This document shows positions 9,065-32,856 of a DNA stretch of 32,856 bases, in pieces (position 1 is the stretch's first letter; every line of letters begins with the position of its first letter). The stretch is from Spirochaetota bacterium. GTDB taxonomy: Bacteria; Spirochaetota; Brachyspiria; Brachyspirales; JACRPF01. The notes beneath the pieces were generated by a model. That model ran no database searches and had not been told where the DNA came from. It worked only from the letters and a program-made list of their open reading frames with translations. The DNA lies in NCBI GenBank assembly GCA_038043445.1, contig JBBTBY010000164.1:1-32856 (forward strand). The letters run 5' to 3'. The translations under genes were made by a program, and so were the position numbers.

Positions 9065-11515
9065 ATGATGAGGTCATTCATGGCATGGTGCTGCGTGTTC
9101 GGGACAGCATTGATCGTATCGTACCCATTACAGGCATCGCTCCTCGTGAACGGCGATTTTGAATCGGGTGACAAGGAATGGAGCGGCTGGGCGAAGACGA
9201 AGGATGTTATGCGTGTCGTGTCCCGTGACGCACACGGCGGGAGCCGCGCGGCACAGATGACGGTGAGCAATGGCAATGTTGCAACCTGGTCGCAGCGATT
9301 ATCCGCTATCCCCCGCGGGGCATATCGGCTTTCCGGATGGGTGCGTACCGAGAGCGCATCGTCGGTATCGATCAAGCTTGAGAGCGACACGGGGTCATTG
9401 GGCGCCTGCCCCATCGTGAGCGGAACGCACATATGGAAACGCATCACCGCCGACATCGATATATCGAAGGACACACGCGCCGTCGTACGCTGTATCATCA
9501 TGAAGGAGGGTACTGCATGGTTCGACGACATCACGCTTGCGCCGGCCGGTTCGGACACCATATCGCTCGAGGGCCACTGGCGCTTCGCCCCCGGCGACGA
9601 TGCGGCGCGCGCTTCCGAACGCTTGGATGACAGTGCGTGGAAACAGATACGTGTTCCGGCTCTCTGGGAGAACGAGGGGTATCCCGATGTGGAAGGCTTC
9701 GCCTGGTATCGCCGCACGGTGACCATACCCGAAACCTGGCGCGGCAGAACGCTTGTGCTTCGTATCGGCGGCGTATCGAAAGCGGATGAAGCGTACATGA
9801 ACGGCGATATCATCGGGAGCACGGGCGCATTCCCTCCCGCCTTCAAGGATGCAACCGCCGCTCCGCGGGAATACGTGCTCGCACCCGAGCGTATCCGTTT
9901 CGGTGCGGAGAACTCCATTGCCATCCGCGTGTTCGACGGCAATGACGGACGGCGCGGCGGCATTATGAAAGCGCCGGTGACCGTGGAACCGGTGAGCGGG
10001 GCGATGATAACGCTTACGAAGAGAATACCGACGACCGTCATCGTGCGCGGCGGGACGATAGCCCTCGATGCCGGGGTACGCATCGCCGATCGTCACGACG
10101 GACTTACGTTCGTGTGCGCATTGCGCGATCATCGCGGCAGGGAGATATCGGCGATACGCCAGACGCTCGCCCCAGGCAGTACGTCGGCGAACGTTCCAAT
10201 AGTCTTCACGCCGGAAACGGAAGGCTATTTCATCTGTGACGCGAGGCTTGAGAACGGGCACGAAGAGCTCGCAGCGGCATCGCTGACCGCCGCTGTCATG
10301 CCGCCCGTATCGCCATCGCGCAATAATTTCGGCGTGGTGGCGCATCTCAAGCGCTTGCCGCCCGAGGAACTTTCGCTCAGGCTCGATATCCTCTCGCGCA
10401 TGGGTGCGAACTGGGTACGCGAGGGTTTTCTCTGGGATATGATAGAGCCATCGGAGGGCGATCTCCGATGGGAACGATTCGACACGATAATCGCGGAAAC
10501 GGCGAAGCGCTCCGTACGCGTGCTCCCCATCGCCGCATATGGTACGGCGTGGGCATCGACAGCGGGGCCGGAAGTGTCCCCCGCGGACAGAAAAAGCGCC
10601 ATGCCGCGCATCGATGCATGGGAACGCTATATTGCGGCAATGGTGGAACGCTATAAAAGATCGTGTCCGGTCTGGGAGATATGGAATGAACCCAACGGCC
10701 TCGGATTCTGGAAACCGTACCCCGATGCAGCGTCATACGCCGCGCTCCTTTCCTCGGCACATGCGGTGATCAAGAGGGTCGATCCGTCACTGTCCGTCAT
10801 GATCGCCGGGTTCTCCCCGAAATACTGGGTGGTCGATCACCCGAAAACGCACGAAGCGCTCTTCGTCAAGGCATTGTACGAGCGCACACCGCGGCCGTTC
10901 GATATCGCTGCGTATCATCCCTACACCGCTCCCGCGACCGAAACATCGAACCGCGCCGTCGTCGATAAATTAGTCTTCATGCCATCGTCGATACGCGATG
11001 TGCTGCGCGCGAACGGGGACGAGAACGTTCCGATGTGGTTCACCGAGATGGGTACGCCGACGCGGAGTTTCATGACGAAGGAGCGTGCGGCGGAATACCT
11101 CGTGCTCCTCTACGTAAAGGCGCTCTCGCTCCCGAACATCGGCACCTGTTTCTGGTACGACCTTGTCGATGACGGCACTGACCCGAACGATTCAGAGCAG
11201 AATTTCGGGCTGCTCCACGCCGACTATACGCCGAAACAGGGCTATGTCGCCTATGCAGTGCTTGTGCGCATGCTCGGCAATGCTGTTTTCATGCGCGATG
11301 AGTATCGCAGCGGCGCATCGTTTTATCATTTCAAGCGCGGCACGATCGCTGTCATTGCTGCGTGGGCGGACGGTCCCGCCGCGGTGTCCTGTCCGCTGCC
11401 CCGGCAGGATTCGCCTGCGCGCATCACCGATCACATGGGCATTATCATCGCGGGATCGGCGCGCGGCGTCTATGCTGTCGGTGAAAGCCCGGTCTATATC
11501 GAATACGACGAATGA
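9065..11515 (+). CDS. Secreted multidomain clan GH-A glycoside hydrolase
   Basis: 816 residues. A signal peptide (about 1-25) is followed by a CBM4/9-like jelly roll (about 27-160; begins LLVNGDFESGDKEWSGW), a GH2-type sugar-binding domain (about 168-300; LEGHWRFAPGDD, then FAWYRRTVTIPETWRG and MNGDIIGSTGAFPPAF), a beta-sandwich linker (about 305-415) and a TIM barrel (about 420-760). The predicted acid/base is Glu542 in WEIWNEPN and the nucleophile Glu661 in WFTEMGT, a spacing fitting the GH5/GH39-like families. It should cleave a plant or algal polysaccharide outside the cytoplasm; the exact linkage is not readable. The gene has its own promoter, lies divergent from the UroD-like/pgi operon, and ends 3 bp from a convergent araC gene that may control it. 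All domains and catalytic residues look intact. Confidence 0.85.
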   Translation: MMRSFMAWCCVFGTALIVSYPLQASLLVNGDFESGDKEWSGWAKTKDVMRVVSRDAHGGSRAAQMTVSNGNVATWSQRLSAIPRGAYRLSGWVRTESASSVSIKLESDTGSLGACPIVSGTHIWKRITADIDISKDTRAVVRCIIMKEGTAWFDDITLAPAGSDTISLEGHWRFAPGDDAARASERLDDSAWKQIRVPALWENEGYPDVEGFAWYRRTVTIPETWRGRTLVLRIGGVSKADEAYMNGDIIGSTGAFPPAFKDATAAPREYVLAPERIRFGAENSIAIRVFDGNDGRRGGIMKAPVTVEPVSGAMITLTKRIPTTVIVRGGTIALDAGVRIADRHDGLTFVCALRDHRGREISAIRQTLAPGSTSANVPIVFTPETEGYFICDARLENGHEELAAASLTAAVMPPVSPSRNNFGVVAHLKRLPPEELSLRLDILSRMGANWVREGFLWDMIEPSEGDLRWERFDTIIAETAKRSVRVLPIAAYGTAWASTAGPEVSPADRKSAMPRIDAWERYIAAMVERYKRSCPVWEIWNEPNGLGFWKPYPDAASYAALLSSAHAVIKRVDPSLSVMIAGFSPKYWVVDHPKTHEALFVKALYERTPRPFDIAAYHPYTAPATETSNRAVVDKLVFMPSSIRDVLRANGDENVPMWFTEMGTPTRSFMTKERAAEYLVLLYVKALSLPNIGTCFWYDLVDDGTDPNDSEQNFGLLHADYTPKQGYVAYAVLVRMLGNAVFMRDEYRSGASFYHFKRGTIAVIAAWADGPAAVSCPLPRQDSPARITDHMGIIIAGSARGVYAVGESPVYIEYDE

Positions 11516-12533: not shown

Positions 12534-12983
12534 ATGAACACCATTAACCGCGAGATCATCGAACACGTCGAAGCGATCATTAAGACGTTCCGGAGCAGGA
12601 AGTACGCCCCGATGATGTTCTCCGCGCACACCTCCGACCTGACGATGTCCGACATGCAGATCCTCGTCATGCTTTCAAAGACGGGGCCATCGACCGTGGG
12701 GGATATTGCTGCGTACGGCAATGTGAAGGCGCCGACGGCGAGCGCTATGGTAAAGAAACTTGAGCGGCTCGGTTATGTATCGCGGATCCATGGTACGGAA
12801 GACCGCCGTGTGGTACGCGTCGCCCTTACGCAGAAGGGTAAGCGCGTCTATGAGGACCATTCCTCGAAGGCGGCGAACTATATGGAAATGCTCATGAAAC
12901 GATACGATAGGTCCGAGCGGCAGAAACTTCTTACGCTCGTACGCGAGATACGCGAACTTTTCGAGAAGGTGAGCGAACGATGA
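12534..12983 (+). CDS. MarR family transcriptional regulator
   Basis: 149 residues, the standard MarR length. The dimerisation helices at both ends flank a winged helix-turn-helix (about 40-108): MSDMQILVMLSKTGPSTVGDIAAYGN, the recognition helix KAPTASAMVKKLERLGYVSR, and the wing with the family-typical EDRRVVRVALTQKG. MarR proteins repress multidrug efflux operons and release DNA on binding ligands or on oxidation. The gene lacks a clear ribosome site and starts 28 nt after a good promoter, with a palindrome between them. Its stop overlaps the start of the next gene by four bases (ATGA). It leads a five-gene efflux operon and most likely represses it. No Cys is present, so ligand sensing is likelier than thiol sensing. 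Confidence 0.93.
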   Translation: MNTINREIIEHVEAIIKTFRSRKYAPMMFSAHTSDLTMSDMQILVMLSKTGPSTVGDIAAYGNVKAPTASAMVKKLERLGYVSRIHGTEDRRVVRVALTQKGKRVYEDHSSKAANYMEMLMKRYDRSERQKLLTLVREIRELFEKVSER

Positions 12984-13546
12984 AACGCGCGATAGTGCTC
13001 CTTGTCCTTACGGCAGCGCATGCCGCATTGCTTGCCGCAGCCGATAAGATGATATTCACCGGCTTTTCCGTGGCCTATCAGACCATGCTTTCGCCGTCCT
13101 CGATAAAGAGCGCTTCGACGAATATCTACGATACGGTATCCATCGACGGTGTTGTGGGGGCTACGATAATACCCTGGGTCGATGTCTACGCAGGGCTGGG
13201 GTTCTCTATCTTCATCGTCACCAACGATGTGCAGCAGTATTTTTCGTTCCTCCCGTTATACGCCGGTGTTGCCGTTAATCCGCTCCCGAATTGGACATTT
13301 CGCCCGCAGGTATTCGCGGAGGCGGGCATCGCCTTCAACAACCGGCATAATCATGTCGGTACGACGCATTCCGATATTTCGTGGAACGGTTTCTTCACCT
13401 CGGTCGGTGCCGCCGTCTGCTATGAGTTCGTCAACAATTCGATACTGTCGCTCCGCGCGGCATTGTCGTTCTACCCGAAACCCGATTTCCTTGCCGACGG
13501 CTTCATGGCGCTGAAGATCGGCTTCGGGTGGAGGAATTACTTCTGA
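12980..13546 (+). CDS. Small outer-membrane beta-barrel protein
   Basis: 188 residues. A clear signal peptide (MKRAIVLLVLTAAHAALLAAA, cleavage near residue 21) is followed by alternating hydrophobic and polar strands with aromatic girdles (VGATIIPWVDVYAGLGFSIF, LPLYAGVAVNPLPNWTFRPQ, SILSLRAALSFYPK). The chain ends in KIGFGWRNYF, a terminal aromatic beta-signal recognised by BAM. This suggests an 8-stranded barrel of the OmpA/OmpX type. It overlaps marR by 4 bp and the TolC-like gene by 1 bp (TGATG), so it is translationally coupled inside the efflux operon. An extra barrel between regulator and pump is not standard; it could be an accessory pore or a stabiliser. No closer family is recognised. 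Confidence 0.75.
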   Translation: MKRAIVLLVLTAAHAALLAAADKMIFTGFSVAYQTMLSPSSIKSASTNIYDTVSIDGVVGATIIPWVDVYAGLGFSIFIVTNDVQQYFSFLPLYAGVAVNPLPNWTFRPQVFAEAGIAFNNRHNHVGTTHSDISWNGFFTSVGAAVCYEFVNNSILSLRAALSFYPKPDFLADGFMALKIGFGWRNYF

Positions 13547-14850
13547 TGAAAAAGCTCGTTCTATTCGCTATCGCAGCGGTCGCGCTTACCGCAGAGACAC
13601 GGACGCTCTCATTCGATGACTGCTATCGCGTTGCCCTTACGAACAATGACGATCATCGCATTGCCAGGCTCGATGTCGAGATCGCCGAGGCGCAATTCCA
13701 GAAAGCCACAGCGGATTTCGGTCCGACAGTGACGGCAAGCGGCGGGTATCTTGCTTCAACACGCGGCGCGCTCGTGACCATCCCGATGATGGGTTCGTTC
13801 GAGATGAGCACGCGGCAGCCGTATACCGCACAGATGTCGGTCAATCAGCCCCTCTTCACCTTCGGCAGGCTTTCGCTGGAGCTTAAGATACAGGAAGAGC
13901 AGCTGCGTATAGCAAAAGTAAAACTGAAGAAAGCGGGTGAAAAGCTGAAGGCTGATACGATCAGTGCTTTTTACGGCGCCCTCGTATCGCAGGAAAGTCA
14001 TCGCATACAGGAAGAATCGCTCAAGCGCGCGAAGGAAATGCTTGCCGTCAATCAGAGGAAATTCGCGGGCGGCGAGGCGTCGAGCTATGATGTACTGCGC
14101 TCGCGCATCGAGGTGGACAGCACGGCACCGAACGTGAAGTCGATGAAGAACGCATACGAGATGTCGCTCAAGCGGCTGAAGGCGTTCATCGGCATGGAGT
14201 TATCGGCACCGATAGCACTTGCGGGCGAACTTTCGTTCAGGAAGATAGAGATCGATTACCCGGAGGTGGAGAAACGCTTCCGGATTTCCAATGACGACCG
14301 CGAGATACAGGAACGCCTCTCGACGATATCTGAATGTCGCCGCTGGAAAGCGGTAAGTCAGCTTTTCCCTACGATATCGATCTCGGCGAACAATGTCTAT
14401 TCGCTCAGCAATTATAATTTCCGATGGGAGAACTGGCAGAATTCATGGGACATCAGCATTGGCTTTCAGTGGACACTTTATAATAATTTCAAGAACGTGA
14501 GCGATATCAAGCAGGCTTCGGCCGATGCCGAAAAACAGAGGATAACGCAGCAATCCATTGAAAAACAATTTCGGCTTCAGCTCGAATCGATATACCTCTC
14601 GCTTGATGAGTATAAGGATATCATCGAGGCGGCGGACCGCACGGTGAAGCAGGCGGAAGAGGGCTATCGCATCGCCCGGGAGAATTTCGTCAACGGTCTT
14701 GCGAAGAACATCGACCTGCGCGACGCGGAGGTGGCGCTCATGCGCTCGAAGCTCAATTATCTGAACGCACTCTATAATTACATCGTCAAGGCAGAGGAGT
14801 TCAGGAATCTTGCCGATATACCCGACGCCGAAACGAAAGCGGAGCATTAG
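13546..14850 (+). CDS. TolC-like outer-membrane efflux channel
   Basis: 434 residues from the ATG at 13546, with GGAGGA 11 bases upstream; a GTG at 13528 is possible but adds six residues before a clean signal peptide (MKKLVLFAIAAVALTA). The OEP repeat pattern is present twice: LSFDDCYRVALTNNDDHRIARLD with FGPTVTASGGYL in the first half, and RFRISNDDREIQERLSTISECR with LFPTISISANNVYSL in the second. Long periplasmic helices follow, with YGALVSQESHRIQEESLKRAKEML and LSLDEYKDIIEAADRTVKQAEE. The terminal helix has LRDAEVALMRSKLNYLNALYNY, the usual ending. TolC trimers form the exit duct of tripartite pumps. The stop is separated from the adaptor gene by one base. No lipobox Cys is seen. Confidence 0.92.
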   Translation: MKKLVLFAIAAVALTAETRTLSFDDCYRVALTNNDDHRIARLDVEIAEAQFQKATADFGPTVTASGGYLASTRGALVTIPMMGSFEMSTRQPYTAQMSVNQPLFTFGRLSLELKIQEEQLRIAKVKLKKAGEKLKADTISAFYGALVSQESHRIQEESLKRAKEMLAVNQRKFAGGEASSYDVLRSRIEVDSTAPNVKSMKNAYEMSLKRLKAFIGMELSAPIALAGELSFRKIEIDYPEVEKRFRISNDDREIQERLSTISECRRWKAVSQLFPTISISANNVYSLSNYNFRWENWQNSWDISIGFQWTLYNNFKNVSDIKQASADAEKQRITQQSIEKQFRLQLESIYLSLDEYKDIIEAADRTVKQAEEGYRIARENFVNGLAKNIDLRDAEVALMRSKLNYLNALYNYIVKAEEFRNLADIPDAETKAEH

Positions 14851-14851
14851 C

Positions 14852-15985
14852 ATGGCAAAAGCAAGTCCGGTATTGGAATTCTTTCAGGGGCTATGGAATG
14901 TCATCACCATTGCGTTCTTTGCGGCAGTGAAGCTCGCCGTTCGGGCGGCAAAAGCGGCTGCGGTCTTCGCGATAAAGGCTGCCGGCACTATCGCTGTGTC
15001 ATTTTTGCATATGATCATGCTCGTGCGCTCACTGCGCGATATCAAGTGCTTCAAGCGCGAGGTGAAGCAGCTGGGTACACGTACGCTCGTGACCGACGGC
15101 GCTGTCATCACCGTGACAGTGCTCGCCCTCATCATGATAGTGCAGATCGGGTTTTCCATCGCGAAAAGCCGTGCCGGGGTGCCGCCGCTCGAATACAATG
15201 TCGGCATAACGAAGATAGCGAAGGAAAGCGTGCGTGAGATAATGGAACTGCAGGGGATAGTTGAGGGCGACCCGCAGATAAAGCTCTATCCCTCCGTGCC
15301 GGGAAAATTCGACAGGAATGGCGTGCGCGAAGGAGCGGCCGTGAAAAAGGGCGATGCGCTTGTTTTCATCAACCGCGATATCGTAGGCTACGATTATCTC
15401 CCTGCGCCGGTCAGGTCCCCCATCGACGGCATCGTGACACGGCTCTATTTCGTCGACCGCGGGGCGGCCATATCGCCCGATCGTGCTGTCGCCGAGGTCG
15501 CCAATAGCGCGAACGTGAAGGTGGTCGTGAGCGTGGGTGAAAGCGATATCGCCGTGATACGAAAGGACCAGGTGTCACGCATCGTATCGCTTCAGAACAC
15601 GAATATAAGCGTCGACGGCACGGTCGATTCGGTGACGCCGTTCGTCGATAAGGATACGCTTGCCGGCACGGTCATCGTGCGTGCGGTGAACACGAACAGG
15701 AACAATGTATTCCCGCTCACCATCGGCATGTCGGTGAAGGCGGAGATCGATACCGGTGCGCATGATGCGTATATGGTCCCTGAGCGCGCGGTGCTCCTCG
15801 GTCAGGACCGCGTGTATGTGTATATCATGACCAACGGAAAGGCAAAGGCGCTTACGGTGCTTAAGGGATATGCCCGCGGGGAGATGACCGAGATCATCGG
15901 CGAACTGTCCGACGGCATGGAGATAGTGACCGACGGCGCCTTCAAGCTCTATGACGGGGCTGCGATAAAGGCGATGAAGAAATGA
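14852..15985 (+). CDS. RND efflux periplasmic adaptor with extended hydrophobic N-terminus
   Basis: 377 residues; the ATG at 14852 has GGAG seven bases upstream, overlapping the end of the channel gene. From residue 115 the protein is a membrane fusion adaptor: VREIMELQGIVEGDPQIKLYPSVPGKF (lipoyl strand), KKGDALVFI, RSPIDGIVTRLYFVDRG (second lipoyl half), then a beta-barrel (VKVVVSVGESDIAVI) and the membrane-proximal domain ending GAAIKAMKK. The central coiled-coil hairpin is very short or absent. The first 105 residues are odd: an Ala-rich hydrophobic or amphipathic stretch (10-57; AAVKLAVRAAKAAAVFAIKAAG), a charged linker, then a transmembrane helix (82-104). Typical adaptors have a single anchor. 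The partner pump gene lies 127 bp downstream. Confidence 0.88.
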   Translation: MAKASPVLEFFQGLWNVITIAFFAAVKLAVRAAKAAAVFAIKAAGTIAVSFLHMIMLVRSLRDIKCFKREVKQLGTRTLVTDGAVITVTVLALIMIVQIGFSIAKSRAGVPPLEYNVGITKIAKESVREIMELQGIVEGDPQIKLYPSVPGKFDRNGVREGAAVKKGDALVFINRDIVGYDYLPAPVRSPIDGIVTRLYFVDRGAAISPDRAVAEVANSANVKVVVSVGESDIAVIRKDQVSRIVSLQNTNISVDGTVDSVTPFVDKDTLAGTVIVRAVNTNRNNVFPLTIGMSVKAEIDTGAHDAYMVPERAVLLGQDRVYVYIMTNGKAKALTVLKGYARGEMTEIIGELSDGMEIVTDGAFKLYDGAAIKAMKK

Positions 15986-16010
15986 AGACGCAATGTGCGT
16001 ACAAGAACAA

Positions 16011-16073
16011 GGGGCTTCCCCTCGACTTCCACCTCGACACGCTCGGGGCAACGGCTCGGGGACCAAAGCCCCG
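16011..16073. repeat. Inverted-repeat element inside the efflux operon
   Basis: GGGGCTT (16011-16017) and AAGCCCC (16066-16072) are perfect 7-bp inverted ends around a 62-bp segment. A nested hairpin CGGGG/CCCCG lies at 16057-16073, and GGGG-CTT-CCCC at 16011-16021. The internal CTCGACACGCTCGGGGCAAC resembles dispersed intergenic repeats of environmental bacteria. It may form RNA structure between the adaptor and pump cistrons. Confidence 0.5.
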
Positions 16074-16112
16074 TGCACTCTCTTCTTGTCTATCATGCGT
16101 GAGTGACCGGCA

Positions 16113-19100
16113 ATGAATATAGCCCAATTTGCCGTAAAACGCCCCGTTCTCGTCGTGATGATAATCGCTTCGCTCATCACGCTCGGTGTCATCGGTTATT
16201 CGCGTCTGCCCGTCGATCTCCTCCCGAACGTGGAACTCCCCAACCTCATCGTGACCGTCGTGTACCCCGGGGCGTCCGCGGAAGAAGCGGAGAATCTCGT
16301 CGCGAAGGAGATCGAAAGCGAGTTCTCTTCGCTTGAAGGCATCGATATTGTGCGATCGATCTGTAAGGAAGGCGTTGCCGTCATCGTGGCGCAATTCTCG
16401 CTCGGTGTGGACATAAAATACGCCGAGATAAAAGTGCGCGAGAAGATGCAGCTCGTGCGCCCGCGTCTCCCGTCGGACATACTCGAACCCATCATGCGGC
16501 GCGTGTCGCTCAATGAGCTGCCCATCATGTACCTTGCGCTCAAGGGTGATCGCGATCTTGCGCGTCTGCGCGAAATACTCGTCGACGATGTGAAGCCGCA
16601 TCTTGAACAGCTTCCCGGCATGGCCTCCATCGATATTCAGGGCGGACGCGAGCGGGTGGTGCGCGTCACCGTCGATAAGGCGCTCCTTGAGGCGCGTTCG
16701 GTATCGTTCAATCAGATCATCAATGCCATAAAACTCCGCAATGTCAATGTCCCTGCCGGCGAGATAAAAGGCACGGCGAAGAACATCGTCGTCCGCGTGG
16801 TCGGCAAGTACGCAAGCGTCGATGAGATAGCGGCGACACCGATCAATGCCGGCGGGCGCATCGTGCGGCTCAAGGATATCGCCGGTGTGGCGTTCACTAT
16901 CGATGATGAGAAGACGCGCGCGCGCGTCGGCGGCGAAAGCGCGGTGCTCATGCTGCTCTACAAACAGAGCGGGGCGAACACCGTGCAGGTGGCAGAAGAA
17001 GTGCGCAAAGCGATGAAGGAGATCGCACAGGAGCTCCCCGAGGACGTGAAGCTCGACCTTGTCAATGATTCATCGCGTCTCATAGAGCGGAGCATTCGCG
17101 GCGTGCAGGAAGATATTCTCCTCGGCGCACTCCTTGCCGTCATCGTGGTATGGCTCTTTCTCGGCAATTTCCGGTCAACGCTCATCACCGCTGCCGCGCT
17201 CCCCAACTCGCTCATCGGCGCGTTCTTCTTTGTTTTTCTCGCCGGCTTCGGCATCAATACCATGTCGCTCCTCGCGCTTTCGCTCGCTATCGGGCTCCTC
17301 ATCGACGACTCCATCGTGGTGCGCGAGAACATATTCCGCTATGTTGAGAAGGGCTTAAGCCCGAAGGACGCCGCCGTCAAAGGCACGAACGAGGTAGCGC
17401 TCGCCGTCGTATCGACCACGCTCGCCATCATGGCGGTGTTCATACCGATATCATTCCTTTCCGGCGTCGTGGGCCAGTTCTTCAAGCAGTTCGGGCTTAC
17501 CATTGCCTTTGCGCTCGCGATATCGCTCCTTGACGCATTCACTACGGCGCCCATGCTTTCCGCGTACTGGATATCATCAAGGAAAAAAGCGGTCACATCG
17601 AGCGCAGGCAAATTCTTTCAGCGTATCACCGGCGGATGGAACGCGTTCTATGACCGAGTGAGCGGAATGTACAGAACGATAATCGGCTGGGCGCTCGATC
17701 ATAAGAAAGCCGTCGTGGGCCTCACCGCAGCGCTCATCGTGCTCTCCGTCATTGCGGCGCGTTTCGTCGGCACAGGCTTTTTCGCGTCCGAGGACCGCGG
17801 CACGTTCAGCGTATCGCTTGAGACATACCCCGGCGCGCCTATCAACACGATAGACGGCATTATGAAAAAGATCGAGAAGCACATTCTCTCGGTACGGGAC
17901 GTCGAATCCTGCTATGCCATCGTCGGCGGCGAGGCGTCGTCGTTCACGTCATCGTCGGCTTCGCATATCGGGAACATTTTCGTGAACATGAAGCCGCTCA
18001 AGGACAGGAAAACGACCACGCAGCAGATGATGGAGATAGTGCGATCGTTCATACGGACGAATCTCGATACCGAGGTCATGTTCAAGCTTCAGGAGCAGGG
18101 CATGGCCGGCGGCAATGAAGGATCGCCCATCCTGATAAATATCAGCGGCGAAGAGCTGTCCCTGCTCGAGGACCTTGCGATACGGCTTAAGCGCATCGTG
18201 CTTGAAACGCCGGGGGCCATCGATGTGGATTCGAGCTTCCGCCCCGGCAAGCCTGAGCTCATCGCGCGCATCGACGGCGTAAAGGCCGAACGCCTGGGCG
18301 TAACAGCTGCGGACGTGGGCGGGTTTCTCCGTTCGCTTGTCCAGGGATATAAGGCATCGAGCTTCCGCGACGGCGAAAAGGATTACGATATCATCGTGCA
18401 GCTTGATGAGAAGAACAGAAATTCCATCGATACGTTCAGGAATCTCGTGCTCACCGCGCGTGACGGAAGGAAGATACCGCTGTCCGCCGTCTGTACGTTC
18501 ACCTATTCGTCCGGACCGCTCGAGATACGCCGTGAGAACCGCATGCGCTATGTCCGCATCGGCGCGAACCTCGCGAAAGGGTATTCCTTTTCGACCGTAA
18601 AGGCCGGCATTGAGAAGCGGATACAGAAAGAGATCGCTTTCCCCGCGGGGTATAAGTATGAATTCGTCGGTCAGGCGAAGCAGTTCGCCGATCTGCAGAC
18701 GCAGATGATAACGGCGATGTTCCTCTCGGTGCTTTTCATGTACATGATACTTGCATCGCTTTACAACTCCTTCGTACAGCCGTTCTATGTCATGTTGACG
18801 CTGCCGCTCGCCATCATCGGCGCATTCCTGGCGCTTCTCATCACCGGCACCACGCTCGATGTGTACGGCTTCATCGGGCTCCTCCTCGTGCTCGGCCTTG
18901 TGGCGAAGAACGCCATATTGCTCGTCGATTTCACCAATCAGAAACGCGATGACGGGTTGTCGGTACGCGACGCGCTCCTCGCTGCAGGGCCCGTGCGGCT
19001 TCGGCCCATTCTCATGACGACATTCGCCATGATATTCGGCATGCTCCCGCTCGCGCTCGGTTTCAGCGAAGGCTCGAAGGGCCGCGAGGCATTGCCTGTC

Positions 19101-19214
19101 GGCGTCATCGGCGGTCTTTTGACATCGACATTCCTCACGCTTATCGTCGTGCCGGTGTTCTATGACACGATCGAATCATATTTCGCGCGCAGAAAGAAAA
19201 TAAAGATAGGGTGA
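16113..19214 (+). CDS. HAE1-type RND multidrug efflux pump subunit (AcrB-like)
   Basis: 1033 residues, full length for an RND inner-membrane pump with 12 membrane helices and two large periplasmic loops. It opens with the typical NIAQFAVKRPVLVVMI and LPVDLLPNVELP. The proton relay is intact: Asp398-Asp399 in LLIDDSIVVRENIF (helix 4) and Lys932 in VAKNAILLVDF (helix 10). The second-half repeat SLYNSFVQPFYVMLTLPLAIIGAF and the closing MTTFAMIFGMLPLALGFSEGSKGREALPVGVIGGL are canonical. It extrudes drugs, lipids or metabolites with proton entry, using the upstream adaptor and TolC-like channel. The ribosome site is weak (GAG, 11 bases upstream), and a repeat-like element precedes it. It is closest to the HAE1 group; the substrate is unknown. 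Confidence 0.95.
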   Translation: MNIAQFAVKRPVLVVMIIASLITLGVIGYSRLPVDLLPNVELPNLIVTVVYPGASAEEAENLVAKEIESEFSSLEGIDIVRSICKEGVAVIVAQFSLGVDIKYAEIKVREKMQLVRPRLPSDILEPIMRRVSLNELPIMYLALKGDRDLARLREILVDDVKPHLEQLPGMASIDIQGGRERVVRVTVDKALLEARSVSFNQIINAIKLRNVNVPAGEIKGTAKNIVVRVVGKYASVDEIAATPINAGGRIVRLKDIAGVAFTIDDEKTRARVGGESAVLMLLYKQSGANTVQVAEEVRKAMKEIAQELPEDVKLDLVNDSSRLIERSIRGVQEDILLGALLAVIVVWLFLGNFRSTLITAAALPNSLIGAFFFVFLAGFGINTMSLLALSLAIGLLIDDSIVVRENIFRYVEKGLSPKDAAVKGTNEVALAVVSTTLAIMAVFIPISFLSGVVGQFFKQFGLTIAFALAISLLDAFTTAPMLSAYWISSRKKAVTSSAGKFFQRITGGWNAFYDRVSGMYRTIIGWALDHKKAVVGLTAALIVLSVIAARFVGTGFFASEDRGTFSVSLETYPGAPINTIDGIMKKIEKHILSVRDVESCYAIVGGEASSFTSSSASHIGNIFVNMKPLKDRKTTTQQMMEIVRSFIRTNLDTEVMFKLQEQGMAGGNEGSPILINISGEELSLLEDLAIRLKRIVLETPGAIDVDSSFRPGKPELIARIDGVKAERLGVTAADVGGFLRSLVQGYKASSFRDGEKDYDIIVQLDEKNRNSIDTFRNLVLTARDGRKIPLSAVCTFTYSSGPLEIRRENRMRYVRIGANLAKGYSFSTVKAGIEKRIQKEIAFPAGYKYEFVGQAKQFADLQTQMITAMFLSVLFMYMILASLYNSFVQPFYVMLTLPLAIIGAFLALLITGTTLDVYGFIGLLLVLGLVAKNAILLVDFTNQKRDDGLSVRDALLAAGPVRLRPILMTTFAMIFGMLPLALGFSEGSKGREALPVGVIGGLLTSTFLTLIVVPVFYDTIESYFARRKKIKIG

Positions 19215-25191: not shown

Positions 25192-27156
25192 GTGTGCCTT
25201 CGGGCATTTTTCGGCGCATTGCTGGCTTTCGGTATGTTCTCTACCGCGTCACTCCGCGCACAAGTTGCCAGTAATTCTGCAACCGGTCTTTCTTACGGAA
25301 CAGTGCAGGCCGCGATCGACGCATGGGGAAGCAATTATACGGTATTCATCCTTGCAAACACCGCTGCGGCAATATCGATAAACAACAAGACAAATCTCGT
25401 CGTCACCGGCACGAATAATGTATCGCCGTTCCGCATCACCGGTGCGGGCACGGGGACCGGCGTTACCATCACGAACCGTTCTCGAAATATCGTCGTGTCG
25501 AACCTCATCATCGAGCGATTTGCCCTCGGCGTATCGATCGACCGCTGTCAGAGCAATGCGGTCTCCCTGACCGTGCGATCGAATCAGAACAGCGCGTGCC
25601 CGGGTGCCGGCGTGCATCTCAATTACGCCACCAATAATATTATTGACGGCATTATTCACGATAATACCAATGTGAGCGGCGCGAACGATTATGGCGGTGC
25701 CGGTCTGTACGCGATATACAGCGTCAGTAATACGATAAGCGCGCATATCGCAAGCAATGTTGTCACCAATACCACGGGTGTTCCGTCCGGCGGCGGCGTT
25801 TATATTGTCAGCGGGCGGTTCAATGTAGTAAGCGGGAACATCGTCGCCAATCGGATATCCAACAGTGTCGGCGGCGGCATAGATTTCGATTACGGTTACG
25901 GGAACAGCATAACGGGGAATGTCACGAAGAACTCCGCGTGGGAGGGCGGCGGCATCTACCTTTTTTACTGTACCAACACGTATGTGAACAGCGCTGTGGT
26001 GAGCAATATCGCAGCGGCCGGAAGCGGCGGCGGTATCTATATGGCGGGGTGTACCTCGAACGCAATTGCCGGTGCGTTGACGTATAACATCGCAACGAAC
26101 CCGGCCTATTACGACTACGGTGCGGGACTTGTCATGAAAAGCTGCATTACCAATATGGTTTCCGCGTCCGTGGGATGGAATACTGCGGCGAGCAGCGGGG
26201 GCGGCATATACTGCAGTAATGTCCGCTGGAGCGTATTCAGCGGACCGATATTCAGTAATTCGCAGTATGATCCGATGCAGTCCGGCGGCGGCATATTCCT
26301 GAATTTCAGCAGCAGTAACACCATCAGCGGCGATGTGTTCGACAACATATGCTCCAACGGATACGGCGGCGGCATCGACATTGATTATGGGTTCTCGAAT
26401 TCCATATTCGGAGCGGTGACCGGCAATTTTGCGAAATACGGCGGCGGGGTGTTTGTGTTCCAGACCGGGAACGTTCTCGTGAGCAATGCGAATATTTCGT
26501 TCAATACTGCCATCACCGATGATGGCGGCGGTGGTTTCTATGCGCTTGCCGGCGGTTCCATAAAGATATACGGCAGCGTATCATCGAATACGGCATCGCA
26601 TGCGAACGCCATGGGCGGCGGCATACGGCTTGAAGGCGCAACGAACTGCATTGTCGCTGCGGATATCATCGGAAACAGAGCGCCGTACGGCGGCGGGGGG
26701 ATATATCTGTCCGATACCCGCAATACAACGATCACGGGAAAAATAATATCGAATTACAGCGGCGGTAACGGGTCGTCCGGCGGCGGTGTGTATCTGGCAA
26801 GCTCCGACAGCAACTACATATCCGCACAGATCATGAGCAATCTCGGGCAGTTCGGCGGCGGTATATGCGTCGATTATGGGAAAACGAACATGATCGACGG
26901 CTATTTCTACGGGAACATCGCAACCAACGGGGCTGCGCTGTACGGATTTGTAGCAAGCAATCTTACGGTGAGCGGTTCCTACGGCGGGAATACCGCGTTC
27001 CGTTCGTTCTTCCTGCAGAGCGCGCTCTTCGGCATCTACAGTAATATGTCCGTGTTCGATGATAGATCGACGATATCGGTGTTCTATACTTACCAACGGG
27101 CTGAGCACAAAATTCCTCAGCAGTGCAATAACGTCACCGTCGTCCGATGCATTTGA
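25192..27156 (+). CDS. Giant secreted beta-helix surface protein, N-terminal part (frameshifted)
   Basis: The preferred start is GTG at 25192, four bases after GGGGAG, because it begins a signal peptide (CLRAFFGALLAFGMFSTASLRA). The ATG at 25027 in the same frame has no ribosome site and adds 55 residues. The mature protein starts with a helix-capping module (SYGTVQAAIDAWGSN). About 15 irregular repeats of roughly 25-32 residues follow, each with G-G-G-[IV]-[YDF] then N-x-I-x-G and S-N or T-N turns, recalling chlamydial Pmp/adhesin repeats and right-handed parallel beta-helices. Exported surface or secreted adhesion, or polysaccharide binding, is likely. Near 27085-27095 the frame fails: SVFYT continues as TNGLSTKFLSSAI in the next frame, while this frame ends at a TGA at 27156. 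Confidence 0.75.
   Translation: MCLRAFFGALLAFGMFSTASLRAQVASNSATGLSYGTVQAAIDAWGSNYTVFILANTAAAISINNKTNLVVTGTNNVSPFRITGAGTGTGVTITNRSRNIVVSNLIIERFALGVSIDRCQSNAVSLTVRSNQNSACPGAGVHLNYATNNIIDGIIHDNTNVSGANDYGGAGLYAIYSVSNTISAHIASNVVTNTTGVPSGGGVYIVSGRFNVVSGNIVANRISNSVGGGIDFDYGYGNSITGNVTKNSAWEGGGIYLFYCTNTYVNSAVVSNIAAAGSGGGIYMAGCTSNAIAGALTYNIATNPAYYDYGAGLVMKSCITNMVSASVGWNTAASSGGGIYCSNVRWSVFSGPIFSNSQYDPMQSGGGIFLNFSSSNTISGDVFDNICSNGYGGGIDIDYGFSNSIFGAVTGNFAKYGGGVFVFQTGNVLVSNANISFNTAITDDGGGGFYALAGGSIKIYGSVSSNTASHANAMGGGIRLEGATNCIVAADIIGNRAPYGGGGIYLSDTRNTTITGKIISNYSGGNGSSGGGVYLASSDSNYISAQIMSNLGQFGGGICVDYGKTNMIDGYFYGNIATNGAALYGFVASNLTVSGSYGGNTAFRSFFLQSALFGIYSNMSVFDDRSTISVFYTYQRAEHKIPQQCNNVTVVRCI
25600..26990 (+). 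repeat. Degenerate GGG[IV]Y beta-helix repeat array
   Basis: About 15 copies of a unit averaging near 90 bp, most marked at DNA level by GGCGGCGGCAT or similar (for example 25790, 25870, 25947, 26030, 26200, 26285, 26365, 26617). The copies are diverged, so this is an old protein-level repeat rather than a recent tandem duplication. Confidence 0.65.
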
Positions 27157-30100
27157 TATCATCAGAACGACGAATCTGTTCTTTTCCAACTGCCTCATCG
27201 CGTCGGTGCCGGGGACAGCGCTCATTTTTTCGAATGCCGGCACCAATATCATCATGCACTGTACGATAACGAACAATATCGCCGGTATATCCAATGTGGC
27301 TTTTTCATCGAACCGTATCCATAACAATAATATCGACAACCTCGGGATGAACCTTGCTTCAATGAACGTCGCCTCGTATGCAGCAAGTAATTTTTTCGGC
27401 ACACGTGCCTTCACGCAGATGAAGCTTCTGCGGACGAACCATGGGGTCACGCCGTGGAGGAACATGTTCGGCGGGCGCAACGGCGACTGGGTGCTGCCGC
27501 CGTCCCCCAACGGCTGCATCGCGGCTACGAATCTTGCGCTGGGACAGATAGTCATACAATGGCAGCAGATCGCTCTCGCCGATTTCAGCAATTATCAGGT
27601 GTATCGTACCCAAGCCGATTCCTTTTCGAATCTATCCGATGCCTCCCGGGTATTCACAGGCTTCAACAGTACGGTAACGCAGTTCGTCGAGAACGACATG
27701 GTCGGCGGCGTGTACCGGTACTATGCGACCGTCATGGATACGAACGGCAATGAGTCCTGGTACTCGCCGATGGGCATAGTCACGAACAATACCATAGTGG
27801 CGAGCAATGCGAATACGTTCGCTACCTACACCAATTTGCAGCAGGCGATAAATGCTGCGGCGGGCGGGCATACCATCATCGCGTATCGGACACGGCATAT
27901 CGGGAACTATGTGATAGACAGATCGCTCACATTGCGCTCGCGTGACTGGATCGATTTCGGCGAGAATATGAGGACGATCATAGAGTCGCCGAGCCTTACG
28001 ACCGATCCCCTGATGCTCAGCAATCCCGCGCCGATATCCGTTACGGTCGAGGGTTTCAATATATGCCGGGGGCAGACGGGCGTCCGCGTGCAGTCGAACG
28101 TAACGGCGAACATCCTCAACAATGTCATCTGCAGCAATGAGAGCCGCGGGGTGCTCCTCAATATCGGTTCGCTGTACTGTACCATCATATCGAACAGGAT
28201 ATTCAGCAATGCGGCACAGAATTTCAGCGGGCACGGGATATATCTCAACACTAATTTCGGCGGGGCGCTCATCGAATATAATATCATTGAGAACAATAAT
28301 GGTGATACGCCATACGGCATATTTGCGCGAAGCAGCAGCAATCTTCTGCAGATACGATACAACACCATCGTGAGCAATATCAGCGCCCGGACGAACACGG
28401 GCGGCGGCATACGTATCGAGGACTGCTTTTCGGAGGTGATCGGGAACACGATAGGCTACAATGGGAAGTACGCATGCGAGGGCGGGGGCATTGTCATCTC
28501 GAACATCGCAGCCTCGACGAATCTCATCGCGGACAATATCATCACGCATCACCTTGCGTCCAATTACAGTTACGGGATCTATGTGATAACCAATGCGCCG
28601 CTGTCGCTCATGATCATCTCGAACAACAGCATAAGTTCCAACGGGCTGAGCGTCATCTCCAATCTGCGCGCACGCGGCGTGTTCGTCGCTGCCGGCGGCG
28701 GCACCTATGTCATCTGCGATAATACGATAGCGGAGAACCGCGATGCGATCAATTGCGGCGGGGTGGGCGTGCATTTCAATACCGGCACGTTCGCGAACGC
28801 CTTCATCGAGCGCAACAATATCGTGCGGTCAGGGCAATCCGGGATATCCGCGTTCTCAACGGGTGCGGTGACGATACGGAGCAACAGCATCCGCGATTCC
28901 GGCATCGCCATGTCGCTCGCATCCGGCGCATGGGAGGCGTTCGGCATCTATGCATCGAAGTCATCGGCGCTCGTCATCGACGGCAATACGGTAACGGGAA
29001 CGACATCGGTGAACGTGACGAACATCTACGGCATTTCCGTCGGCACCAATGCATCGATCATCAATAATACCGTTGTGAGCAATATGCCGCCGAACTCGAA
29101 GTATGCATGCGGTATCGATATGTACGGGCCGTGCCACTATTCGCTCGTATCGAACAATTATGTGGCGTACAATGCCGGCACGAACACCGGCTACGGGATA
29201 CAGGTGTTCGCATCGGTGCCCGCGTCCAATCGGTTCATCAATAACACCGTCGTGAACAACCGTGACTTCGGCATCATCATGAGCGGGACGAACCGCAGCA
29301 CGGTCATCAGCGGCAGCGCGATATCATCGAACGGCGGATACGGCATCTATATCGGTACCGTGGCGAGCGCGAACAGGATTGTGAGCAACAGTATCGTCGG
29401 CAATAAATATGCCGGTGTGATGCTCAATAATGCCGCGGTTGCGACGAACATCATCTGCTCGAACATCATCCTCGGCCCCGGACAGGAAGAGGGCATCAAT
29501 CTGAGCAGCTGCCCGTCGAACCTTATCTTCAGGAACGTTATCGCCGATCATATGCGCGGCGTGTCCGTCGTCATGGCGAACAGCAATGACATCTTCAATA
29601 ATACCATCTATAACAACGGGAACGGCATCGACTGGAGTACCGCAACGAACGTGCGCATCAGGAATAATATCATTTTCGGCAGCACGAATATCGGCGTGAA
29701 TGACAGCGGGGCATCGGGGAATTCCGAGATAAACTATACCGTTTTCTATAACAATGCGTTCGGCGATACGAACGTAAGCGCCCGCAACAGGATCGGGCCG
29801 AGCAATATGTCTGGCGCCGATCCGTACATCGATACGTTCGGGTCGTATGATATCCTGAGCCCGATGAGCATGGCTGTGGATCGCGGTACGAACATTCCCG
29901 GGATAAGCAGTACGTTCCTCAGCAATGGTCCGGATATCGGGTGGAGGGAATCCGCCTTCTCGTCGGACCAGGCATTGTTCGTGTGCGCTATCACCAACCC
30001 CCCGGCGAATCAATGGATAGGGACGCCGATCGTGAATTTCTCGGGTTCTGCCGGGGCAAGTGTCACCGGCGTATACTTTGGAACGAACAGCACCATGGGG

Positions 30101-32856
30101 CTGGTTTCCGGGACCGGGGTATGGACGACGAATACTATCGATGTGAGCATGTTCTCGAACGCAACGAATGTGTTCTACGCCGCTGCCAGCAATGCGAGCG
30201 GTACGCTTTTCACCAATGTGCAGACGAACTTTTTTGATTTCACCGCGCCTGAGGTTTCGTTCACTGCGCCTGTGGCGCTCGAGGTCATAAGCAATACGGT
30301 GATCTATCAGGGTTCAAATGTCGATACGTCCGCACCGGTCATGGGGTTCTGGTACAATGTGAACGGCGGCGTATGGTCTTCGGTGCCGGTGGAGACGAAT
30401 TGGAGCGGGGACATCGATACCACGATGTACCCGAACGGGATTTTTGTTGTCGGGATACGATCGAGCAATGCTGCGGGGCTCGTTTCGTATGCCTACCGCA
30501 CGAATTACGTGGACAACATTCCGCCGATGTCAGCGACGTATAAATATCCGACAAATGCGGCGGTGAGTATCCTGACCTATTCAAATGCCGCGGCGTTCCC
30601 GCTCGCAAATCCTCCGCCGACCTTCGGGATTTTCGCCGGAGAATTGATCGTTGATCCGGGTACAAAGCTGAATGCCCCGGATGCGGTATCACTGAATGCT
30701 GATGCGAGCAGTACCGCCATGCACAGCGGGTTCCGGTACAAGATAAAGATCAACGAAAGCCTGATCTATGCGACGAATACCTATGTGCGGTGGCGGGGCT
30801 ATACCGATAAGACATCCGGCGGTGTCTATGTATGGAAGAACTCCGCTGGCGCATGGGCCCGGTGCGGGGCCGTTCCTGCAGCGAACGCCGATGTGATAAG
30901 CAATGCCGGACCGCTCAGTAACTATGCGACCAACGAGTATGGAACGAATTATATCTATATAATAGCGAGCGCCATACGTTCCGGAGGTGCGGGGACGATA
31001 TTCGGCGACTATGTAGAGGCGCGTATCGATTCATCGCCGGGTGTGCCGGGAGTGAATAATGACGCCGGGGCGTCGAACATCACCTTTAATTCGGCGCAGC
31101 TCAACGGCGTACTGGAATATGACAGCGGTGTGAACACCACCGTGCGCGTGTACTGGGGATCGGGCGACGGCGGCACAACGCCTGCGTCCTGGGCGAATAT
31201 GATAGACCTGGGGACGCGCAGCATCGGCGGATTTTCAACGAATGTATACGGATTATCTCCCGGGACGACACATTACTACCGAACGTTGGCGTCGAATGTC
31301 TATGGAACGAATTGGGCCGGGGTCACATCGAATTTTACCACAATGCCTATCATTATTGCGACCAATTTCACCATCGGCGGTGCGGGATATTATTCACTGC
31401 AGGCCGCTGTGAATGCCGCATCCGCCGGACATGAGATCCGCGTGCTAGCGACGAATCTTACGCGCAGTGCGGGGCAGCTCAATGCGCTTTCGATGACAAA
31501 CGCCGTTTTCATCACCAACAGGAACGATCTGAGGGTTATCGGCGGCTATGGTCCGGCGTTCGCTGTGCAGACAGGCTATACCGTACTTGACGGTTTGGGA
31601 GCGACGGCGGTCTCCAATCGGCTTGTGTACATTGCGAACCTTACCAACCTCATGTTCGACGGGTTCGTGATACGCGGCGGGGGGAGCAATGGCGGCGTTC
31701 CGATATTGACCGGAACAGGGGTCATTGCATCGAACGTGTCGAATTCGATATTTTCCAATATTGTCGTGAGCAACAATTGTTCGTCCAACGGCGGCGGTAT
31801 GTATATCGCTGATAGTGTCAACAGCGTCTATCATGGCGTGATCGCGGATAATAAGGCGTATAATTCCGCCGGTGGGATGTATTTCATGTACGGCAGCAAC
31901 AATACCATCGGCGGAATGATCGTCGGCAATACCGCGTCGAATTCCGGCGGCGGGGTGTGCACGTACTACAGCAGAGATTCACGCATAAGCGCCGATCTCA
32001 TCAGCAATACTTCATCGAATTTCGCGGCCGGCGCGTACCTGTACGCCAGCAGCAATATGAGCGTCAGCGGACGTATCTCGTACAATACCGCATCGAATGC
32101 CGGCGGCGGTCTGTATCTGAACCTCTCGTTCAGCAATGACATCGCAAGCGCTGTCGTGAACAACAGTTCGTCGAATTTCGGCGGAGGTGTGTATTCACTG
32201 AACAGCAGCAGTAACAGATTTACCGGCAGCATATCGAGCAATGCATCGAAAGATGCCGGCGGCCTCTATATGAGCCTTGGCGTCGGGAACAGCATCAGCG
32301 CGACGGTGAACGGGAATACGGCGACGAATATCGGCGGCGGATTGTATATCCTGAACAATACGAATTGCAGCGTCAGCGCAGTGCTCATGAACAACAGCGC
32401 GAGCAATTTCGGCGGCGGGATCTACTTCACCGGCGGGTCGAACATCATCATATCCGGCAGCTATTTTTCGAACAACAGCGCAGGGGCGACCAATGCCTCC
32501 ATCAGCTTCACGAACAGCACTGCGGCAGTAACGAACGATCCGTTCACGATATCCAATTGCACGTTCTTCGGCGGGGGCGCCAACAGCTATGCGATAATTG
32601 AGCACGGTACAAAAGATATAACGAATCAGACCATCGTATCCAATATTTTCTGGACAAATACGCTGTCCTATCTGTATGGCGACCTGACGGGTATAATTTC
32701 CAATAACCAGGTCGTTCTGTTGAATACGCCGAATACAAGGCATGATGCCATTGCGTCTGCGAAAAACGCTGTTATGCCGGTGATCCCGCTGCCGATCATC
32801 GCGACGAATGCAACGCTCGGCGGGGCCGGGTATTCGATGCTGCAGGATGCCATCGA
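27059..32856 (+). CDS. Giant beta-helix surface protein, continuation in shifted frame, open at window end
   Basis: This frame is stop-free from 26954 to the last base (about 1,930 residues) and contains the continuation of the preceding gene; the ATG at 27059 is only the first one in frame, not a proposed start. Domains in order: the end of the first helix; a fibronectin III-like domain (27505-27780; VIQWQQIALADFSNYQVYR); helix-capping module two at 27812 (TNLQQAINAAAGGHTI) with a NosD-like helix (28000-29750; repeated N-x-I-x-x-N); two Ig-like domains (about 29985-30525); a second fibronectin-like domain (31061-31347; VRVYWGSGDGGT, LSPGTTHYYRTLASN); module three at 31370 (GGAGYYSLQAAVNAASAGHEI) with Pmp-like GGG repeats; and module four starting at 32809. 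Asn and Ser are very frequent. Confidence 0.75.
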   Translation, partial: MIDRRYRCSILTNGLSTKFLSSAITSPSSDAFDIIRTTNLFFSNCLIASVPGTALIFSNAGTNIIMHCTITNNIAGISNVAFSSNRIHNNNIDNLGMNLASMNVASYAASNFFGTRAFTQMKLLRTNHGVTPWRNMFGGRNGDWVLPPSPNGCIAATNLALGQIVIQWQQIALADFSNYQVYRTQADSFSNLSDASRVFTGFNSTVTQFVENDMVGGVYRYYATVMDTNGNESWYSPMGIVTNNTIVASNANTFATYTNLQQAINAAAGGHTIIAYRTRHIGNYVIDRSLTLRSRDWIDFGENMRTIIESPSLTTDPLMLSNPAPISVTVEGFNICRGQTGVRVQSNVTANILNNVICSNESRGVLLNIGSLYCTIISNRIFSNAAQNFSGHGIYLNTNFGGALIEYNIIENNNGDTPYGIFARSSSNLLQIRYNTIVSNISARTNTGGGIRIEDCFSEVIGNTIGYNGKYACEGGGIVISNIAASTNLIADNIITHHLASNYSYGIYVITNAPLSLMIISNNSISSNGLSVISNLRARGVFVAAGGGTYVICDNTIAENRDAINCGGVGVHFNTGTFANAFIERNNIVRSGQSGISAFSTGAVTIRSNSIRDSGIAMSLASGAWEAFGIYASKSSALVIDGNTVTGTTSVNVTNIYGISVGTNASIINNTVVSNMPPNSKYACGIDMYGPCHYSLVSNNYVAYNAGTNTGYGIQVFASVPASNRFINNTVVNNRDFGIIMSGTNRSTVISGSAISSNGGYGIYIGTVASANRIVSNSIVGNKYAGVMLNNAAVATNIICSNIILGPGQEEGINLSSCPSNLIFRNVIADHMRGVSVVMANSNDIFNNTIYNNGNGIDWSTATNVRIRNNIIFGSTNIGVNDSGASGNSEINYTVFYNNAFGDTNVSARNRIGPSNMSGADPYIDTFGSYDILSPMSMAVDRGTNIPGISSTFLSNGPDIGWRESAFSSDQALFVCAITNPPANQWIGTPIVNFSGSAGASVTGVYFGTNSTMGLVSGTGVWTTNTIDVSMFSNATNVFYAAASNASGTLFTNVQTNFFDFTAPEVSFTAPVALEVISNTVIYQGSNVDTSAPVMGFWYNVNGGVWSSVPVETNWSGDIDTTMYPNGIFVVGIRSSNAAGLVSYAYRTNYVDNIPPMSATYKYPTNAAVSILTYSNAAAFPLANPPPTFGIFAGELIVDPGTKLNAPDAVSLNADASSTAMHSGFRYKIKINESLIYATNTYVRWRGYTDKTSGGVYVWKNSAGAWARCGAVPAANADVISNAGPLSNYATNEYGTNYIYIIASAIRSGGAGTIFGDYVEARIDSSPGVPGVNNDAGASNITFNSAQLNGVLEYDSGVNTTVRVYWGSGDGGTTPASWANMIDLGTRSIGGFSTNVYGLSPGTTHYYRTLASNVYGTNWAGVTSNFTTMPIIIATNFTIGGAGYYSLQAAVNAASAGHEIRVLATNLTRSAGQLNALSMTNAVFITNRNDLRVIGGYGPAFAVQTGYTVLDGLGATAVSNRLVYIANLTNLMFDGFVIRGGGSNGGVPILTGTGVIASNVSNSIFSNIVVSNNCSSNGGGMYIADSVNSVYHGVIADNKAYNSAGGMYFMYGSNNTIGGMIVGNTASNSGGGVCTYYSRDSRISADLISNTSSNFAAGAYLYASSNMSVSGRISYNTASNAGGGLYLNLSFSNDIASAVVNNSSSNFGGGVYSLNSSSNRFTGSISSNASKDAGGLYMSLGVGNSISATVNGNTATNIGGGLYILNNTNCSVSAVLMNNSASNFGGGIYFTGGSNIIISGSYFSNNSAGATNASISFTNSTAAVTNDPFTISNCTFFGGGANSYAIIEHGTKDITNQTIVSNIFWTNTLSYLYGDLTGIISNNQVVLLNTPNTRHDAIASAKNAVMPVIPLPIIATNATLGGAGYSMLQDAI
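31780..32450 (+). repeat. Second GGG[IVL]Y repeat array, about 25-residue period
   Basis: Units such as NTASNSGGGVCTYYSRDSRI, NTASNAGGGLYLNLSFSND, NSSSNFGGGVYSLNSSSNR and NTATNIGGGLYILNNTNCS recur about every 75-81 bp. They are more regular than the array near 26 kb, suggesting a younger expansion. Each unit would form one helix coil with an Asn at the turn. Confidence 0.65.

What the first reader, a model, noticed from the sequence alone, without database searches (positions are those of the whole stretch)
25192..32856. Giant modular beta-helix surface protein built from repeated capping modules
Four copies of a module with the pattern GY-x-x-[LV]-Q-x-A-[IV]-[DN]-A (25285, 27812, 31370, 32809) each begin a new beta-helix, separated by fibronectin-like and Ig-like domains. 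Three helix styles alternate (Pmp-like GGG[IV]Y twice, NosD-like once). The protein exceeds 2,500 residues with no end in the window. Such a serial-helix design could make a long rod for adhesion or for holding polysaccharide near the cell. I do not recognise a named family with this order.
Basis: partly seen in the sequence, partly recalled or inferred. Interest (0 to 1): 0.62.

Follow-up and report, generated by a model that had tools for sequence, protein, structure and literature searches.

The report
Giant serial beta-helix surface protein, spirochaete
A little-known spirochaete lineage carries genes for enormous surface proteins, more than 10,000 amino acids in its closest relative, built by stringing many rod-like beta-helix segments end to end, and they may leave the cell by a route so far described only in Bacteroidota and their relatives.

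Summary
The gene starts at GTG 25192 behind a signal peptide. One extra base (A, 27088) shifts the frame, and the gene then runs open off the contig end at 32856. The cap is the ordinary N-cap of right-handed beta-helices, and the GGG helices follow the known Chlamydia-Pmp rung rule ([FIVLM]xxN...GG[GA][ILV]). What is new is the architecture: tandem cap-helix-exit modules mixed with FN3/Ig-like linkers. Sibling contigs supply 7 more caps in one 5,135-codon open contig and an Ig-repeat C-terminus ending in a marginal T9SS-type sorting domain. In the two family genomes, 16 of 27 PorV-family genes sit 72-348 nt downstream of such a domain, and a SprA-like protein is present. Best reading: a very long cell-surface adhesive or polysaccharide-holding rod, probably exported by a T9SS-like route in Spirochaetota. 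Export and function are inferred; single-sequence fold predictions were too weak to count.

The parts
25192..25263 (+). GTG start and signal peptide (VCLRAFFGALLAFGMFSTASLRA|Q); a GGGGAG ribosome-binding-like stretch lies just upstream
   Evidence: sequence; ortholog has a signal peptide at the same place; no signal-peptide predictor was run
25264..25420 (+). N-cap 1 of the first beta-helix (SYGTVQAAIDA)
   Evidence: cap profile 56 bits
25421..27087 (+). Beta-helix 1, GGG/xxN (Pmp-like) rungs, frame 1; its last rungs continue past the frame break
   Evidence: PF13229 49 bits; 13 of 13 paired motifs
27088..27088 (+). One extra base (A): TTC TAT [A] CTT ACC; frame 1 then stops at 27154-27156
   Evidence: comparison with the unbroken G001 ortholog
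27089..32856 (+). Continuation of the gene in frame 2, open to the contig end
27482..27796 (+). FN3-like linker
   Evidence: profile A4 reaches fibronectin chains only at E 0.01-0.04; 2 of 5 members match Pfam fn3, best 2.9e-4; the window's own copy matches none
27794..29960 (+). N-cap 2 and beta-helix 2 (NosD-like rungs)
   Evidence: PF13229 and PF05048; cap 59 bits; ends are approximate
29961..31030 (+). Ig-like linkers and a domain of unknown kind
   Evidence: read by eye; no Pfam match at E 10; conserved in the ortholog
31031..31351 (+). Second FN3-like linker
   Evidence: profile A3 matches titin chains, best E 8e-8 for the whole chain
31352..32755 (+). Complete GGG-type module: N-cap 3, beta-helix 3 and exit piece (HDAIASAKNAVMP)
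   Evidence: 240 bits to module profile A1; cap 54 bits
32789..32856 (+). Start of the next module: N-cap 4, cut by the contig end
   Evidence: sequence IIATNATLGGAGYSMLQDAI

Best explanation
The window holds the 5' part of a gene for a giant secreted, surface-displayed protein of a spirochaete that is a deep relative of a low-G+C order. Shown from sequence: a signal peptide, then helix after helix, each started by a standard N-cap and followed by an exit piece or an FN3/Ig-like linker; the ortholog has 13 caps in 10,811 codons and still runs on. Inferred: the chain crosses the inner membrane by Sec; a C-terminal type-A-like sorting domain, such as the one on sibling contig C21, hands it to an outer-membrane SprA/PorV-type translocon; and it folds outside into a rod perhaps 100 nm or more long (from about 0.48 nm per rung). 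The repeated caps would let each helix fold on its own and keep neighbours from aggregating. Loops on the rungs would bind carbohydrate or neighbouring cells. The single extra base is either an assembly error or a local inactivating mutation; the sister genus keeps the gene intact.
For: Ortholog unbroken and collinear with the window: Wb 11-1494 to G001 992-2465, 53% identity. Caps in series across C84 (7, in a contig open from end to end for 5,135 codons), C6, C38, C25 and G001 C13 (13), C2, C1, C10. C84's 3' end shares exactly 55 nt with C21 and nothing else fetched, as neighbouring contigs of a k=55 assembly would. C21 ends in PKD domains and a Por_Secre_tail-like domain. 19 and 35 such domains in the two family genomes against 1 each in four order-mates. 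PorV-family genes directly downstream of 16 domain-bearing genes; 0.3-0.5% expected. SprA-like protein of about 2,200 aa in G001 and a truncated copy in the own genome. FlaA hits mark a spirochaete.
Against: No single contig joins the window to C84 or C21; the link rests on the ortholog's order. The sorting domain of C21 scores 25 bits in the genome search but 19.7 by hmmscan against a cut-off of 23. The SprA-like match is partial and far below its cut-off. No GldM found, GldL weak, no PorU catalytic part. AlphaFold models from single sequences are of low confidence (pLDDT 48 and 35) and Foldseek found nothing significant. Function is not tested.
Confidence: 0.6

Rival explanations
1. A decaying pseudogene: the extra base is real, so this cell makes only the first, about 650-residue helix and the rest is dead DNA.
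For: Frame break at 27088; a second frame change in the paralog on C25 near 11103-11172.
Against: The frames on both sides are clean: 5.8 kb open after the break, third-position G+C alike on both sides (0.66 and 0.70), 5,135 open codons in C84, ortholog intact. Draft assembly in 178 contigs broken at these repeats.
Confidence: 0.2
2. An autotransporter (type V) passenger of the Pmp kind: the beta-helix rod is pushed out through its own C-terminal barrel.
For: GGG/xxN rungs like those of Pmps (PMC10715098).
Against: No PF02415 match; the candidate C-terminus on C21 ends in a sorting-type domain and PKD domains, with no barrel.
Confidence: 0.07
3. A secreted polysaccharide-degrading enzyme array: several beta-helices are lyases or hydrolases of the pectate-lyase type, kept on one chain.
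For: The fold is shared with polysaccharide lyases; a glycoside hydrolase-like gene lies elsewhere in the window (9065-11515).
Against: No lyase or hydrolase family match in the window's helices or in C84; few Lys; highly regular rungs of the structural type. No catalytic residues were mapped.
Confidence: 0.1

Closest known systems
Chlamydial polymorphic membrane proteins (Pmps)
   Same: GGG helices 1 and 3 obey the same rung rule (xxN paired with GGA/GGG-hydrophobic; PMC10715098; tested)
   Different: No Pmp family match, no autotransporter barrel seen, many separately capped helices in one chain, far longer
Adhesin-like proteins of Methanobrevibacter and Methanosphaera (PMC11532034)
   Same: Right-handed beta-helix plus Ig-type stalk domains, rich in Asn, capped helix
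   Different: 128-4,691 aa in M. smithii with an archaeal membrane anchor; here at least 10,811 codons (ortholog) and probably a T9SS-type tail
Giant surface proteins of Chlorobium chlorochromatii (Cag_0614/0616; PMC4053972) and Omnitrophota (PMC10066038)
   Same: Bacterial proteins of tens of thousands of residues with a proposed role in adhesion
   Different: Different domains (RTX/hemagglutinin-like, or few known domains and transmembrane helices); no serial capped helix in the passages read
NosD / PF13229-type beta-helix proteins
   Same: Rungs of helix 2 and the N-cap
   Different: Fold-level similarity only; TIGR04247 31 bits against cut-off 300

Membership tests
Right-handed parallel beta-helix proteins (PF13229) | Profile match over the gathering score | tested here: met
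   49 and 122 bits against 25.9; C84 part 490 bits
Right-handed parallel beta-helix proteins (PF13229) | Predicted or solved beta-helix structure | tested here: inconclusive
   Models of low confidence, no significant fold match
Chlamydial Pmp | PF02415 match | tested here: not met
   No match at E 0.001
[quoted passage not shown]
   13 of 13 and 6 of 6; shuffles at most 3 and 2
Chlamydial Pmp | C-terminal autotransporter barrel | tested here: inconclusive
   The window ends before the C-terminus; the candidate end on C21 has none
T9SS type A cargo | C-terminal sorting domain (TIGR04183/PF18962) | tested here: inconclusive
   On C21, not in the window: 25 bits in the genome search, 19.7 and 20.2 by hmmscan, under the cut-offs 23 and 27
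T9SS type A cargo | Sec signal peptide | tested here: inconclusive
   Read by eye at 25192 and in the ortholog; no predictor was available
Type IX secretion system in this genome | SprA translocon | tested here: inconclusive
   About 178 collinear residues, 73.5 bits against 200 in G001; own copy truncated by its contig start, 54% identical to it
Type IX secretion system in this genome | PorV/PorQ family shuttle | tested here: met
   18 hits in own genome, three over the cut-off
Type IX secretion system in this genome | GldL/GldM motor | tested here: inconclusive
   GldM none, but its control rang nowhere either; GldL weak, below cut-off
Type IX secretion system in this genome | PorU sortase | tested here: not met
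   Only the C-terminal domain region of the profile matched
NosD (TIGR04247) | Match over the curated cut-off | tested here: not met
   31.3 bits against 300

The most novel reading that the evidence does not exclude
A spirochaete family exports a large set of surface proteins, including serial beta-helix giants, through a T9SS-like outer-membrane route (type-A-like tail, a PorV-type shuttle encoded next to many cargos, SprA-like translocon) but with a different motor, outside the FCB phyla to which T9SS is said to be confined (PMC11285876).
Probability: 0.4. Interest if true: 0.72.

Novelty: new variant of a known kind. Interest (0 to 1): 0.52.

Why it matters
It adds a spirochaete lineage to the few bacteria with proteins over 10,000 residues and shows a simple way to build a very long rod, by repeating independently capped beta-helices. 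It also points to a T9SS-like export route in Spirochaetota: SprA-like proteins turned up in 73 of 198 genomes of the phylum, while the literature read says T9SS genes are absent outside FCB phyla.

Tried and rejected
Programmed frameshifting at 27088: rejected, because the ortholog has no extra base there. The window as a part of a longer contig: no, the contig ends at 32856. An exact continuation of the window's end elsewhere in the assembly: none found. AlphaFold on two window pieces without an alignment: too weak to use. Viral and phage collections hold no relative of the cap module. The named genome collection gave only one remote hit, 28% identity, in candidate division TA06. C6 and C38 cannot be assigned with certainty to this gene or to the second giant gene on C25.

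Full report
Where it is. The window is the whole of contig C164 of a 5.13-Mb draft genome in 178 contigs. FlaA flagellar genes are found in it and in eight relatives but in none of 14 control genomes, which marks the phylum as Spirochaetota. The four order-mates sampled are 28-30% G+C over short loci, which would fit Brachyspira; that name is my inference. The window itself is 55% G+C. Only one other genome of the same family turned up (G001).

Observation. Frame 1 runs from GTG 25192 to a stop at 27154-27156; frame 2 is open from before 27059 to the contig end. The protein is continuous across the change. The window reads TTC TAT A CTT ACC where the G001 ortholog reads TTC TAT CTG ACC, so one base (27088) is extra in the window. 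G001's protein is open for 10,811 codons through this place and to the end of its own contig, and window residues Wb 11-1494 align with its residues 992-2465 at 53% identity.

Modules. A cap profile made from 27 copies finds 1 and 2 full caps in the window frames, 7 in C84, 3 in C6, 4 in C38, 4 in C25, 13 in G001 C13 and several in other large genes of G001; ten shuffles of all the proteins gave one hit. C84 is open from end to end, 5,135 codons in 15,405 nt. The caps are of the usual kind for right-handed beta-helices (Y..[LIV]Q.A[IV]..A..G..I.V; established knowledge); PMC11532034 cites work that such caps hinder aggregation.

Helix styles. Pfam Beta_helix and NosD match along the protein. 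GGG motifs are mostly 25-31 residues apart in helix 1, and in helix 3, C6 and C38 the hydrophobic pattern peaks at 26 residues above shuffles; helices 1 and 2 show no such peak above shuffles. In Pmps, GGGI and [ILV]xxN are described as stand-ins for GGA and FxxN (PMC10715098); the window's GGG motifs in helices 1 and 3 are all preceded by such an xxN. So helices 1 and 3 most likely have Pmp-type rungs, without the protein being a Pmp. Structure prediction from single sequences was not informative.

The other end. Sibling contig C21 begins inside about 380-residue Ig-like repeats and ends with PKD domains and a C-terminal domain resembling the T9SS type A sorting domain. The 3' end of C84 has 55 nt identical to C21 and to nothing else fetched. 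The G001 giant has the window-like part first, C84-like parts in the middle and C21-like repeats last, so the simplest reading is one gene: C164, missing modules (C6 and C38 are candidates), C84, C21. If so, it has at least about 9,800 codons. This order is inferred. C127 carries a similar Ig-repeat end and could be the tail of this gene or of the second giant gene, whose start is on C25.

Export. The two family genomes have 19 and 35 matches to the sorting domain, each of four order-mates one. 16 of 27 PorV-family hits lie 72-348 nt downstream of such a domain on the same strand, where under 1% would by chance. PorV is the T9SS shuttle in Bacteroidota (title and abstract of PMC5562754). A protein of about 2,200 aa in G001 has a collinear stretch of SprA (73.5 bits, cut-off 200); the truncated own-genome copy is 54% identical to it. 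Across the phylum, 73 of 198 genomes have such a SprA-like match, all under the cut-off. GldM was not found (the control was silent too), GldL only weakly, and PorU only by its own C-terminal domain. So a T9SS-like outer-membrane half is plausible and the rest is open. PMC11285876 states that T9SS genes are absent outside FCB phyla; PMC4793230 found them only in Bacteroidetes.

Verdict. A real, very large modular beta-helix surface protein, with a one-base frame break in this assembly. It is a new variant of a known kind (modular adhesin-like beta-helix giants). Its possible export route is the more surprising lead.

Noticed in passing
G000 C127, C13, C69, C111, C178, C45, C64, C75, C134, C167; G001 C1, C4, C5, C14, C21: Genes with a T9SS-type sorting domain are followed within 72-348 nt by a PorV-family gene, 16 cases in two genomes, like cargo and shuttle pairs.
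   Followed up: partly
L081:6867-13493 (G001), L080:1-4401 (own genome): SprA-like protein of about 2,200 aa; similar partial matches in 73 of 198 Spirochaetota genomes.
   Followed up: partly
L011:7102-13682: A second giant serial-helix gene begins on C25; its frame also shifts near 11103-11172.
   Followed up: no
L046 and L047 (G001 C13): One open frame of 10,811 codons that runs off the contig, with 13 beta-helix caps and Ig-like repeats at the end.
   Followed up: yes
L014:6339-9833 and L011:3211-6000: Large TPR-repeat proteins lie next to the giant genes.
   Followed up: no
window 12980-19214: An efflux set: a 188-aa protein without a family match, TolC-type outer membrane protein, HlyD-type adaptor and AcrB-type pump.
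   Followed up: no
window 25192-25263; G001 C13 and C2: The signal peptides of these giants seem to be followed by Gln (A|QVASN, S|QVASN, A|QVASN), reminiscent of the Bacteroidetes 'Q-rule' (abstract of PMC5837995).
   Followed up: no
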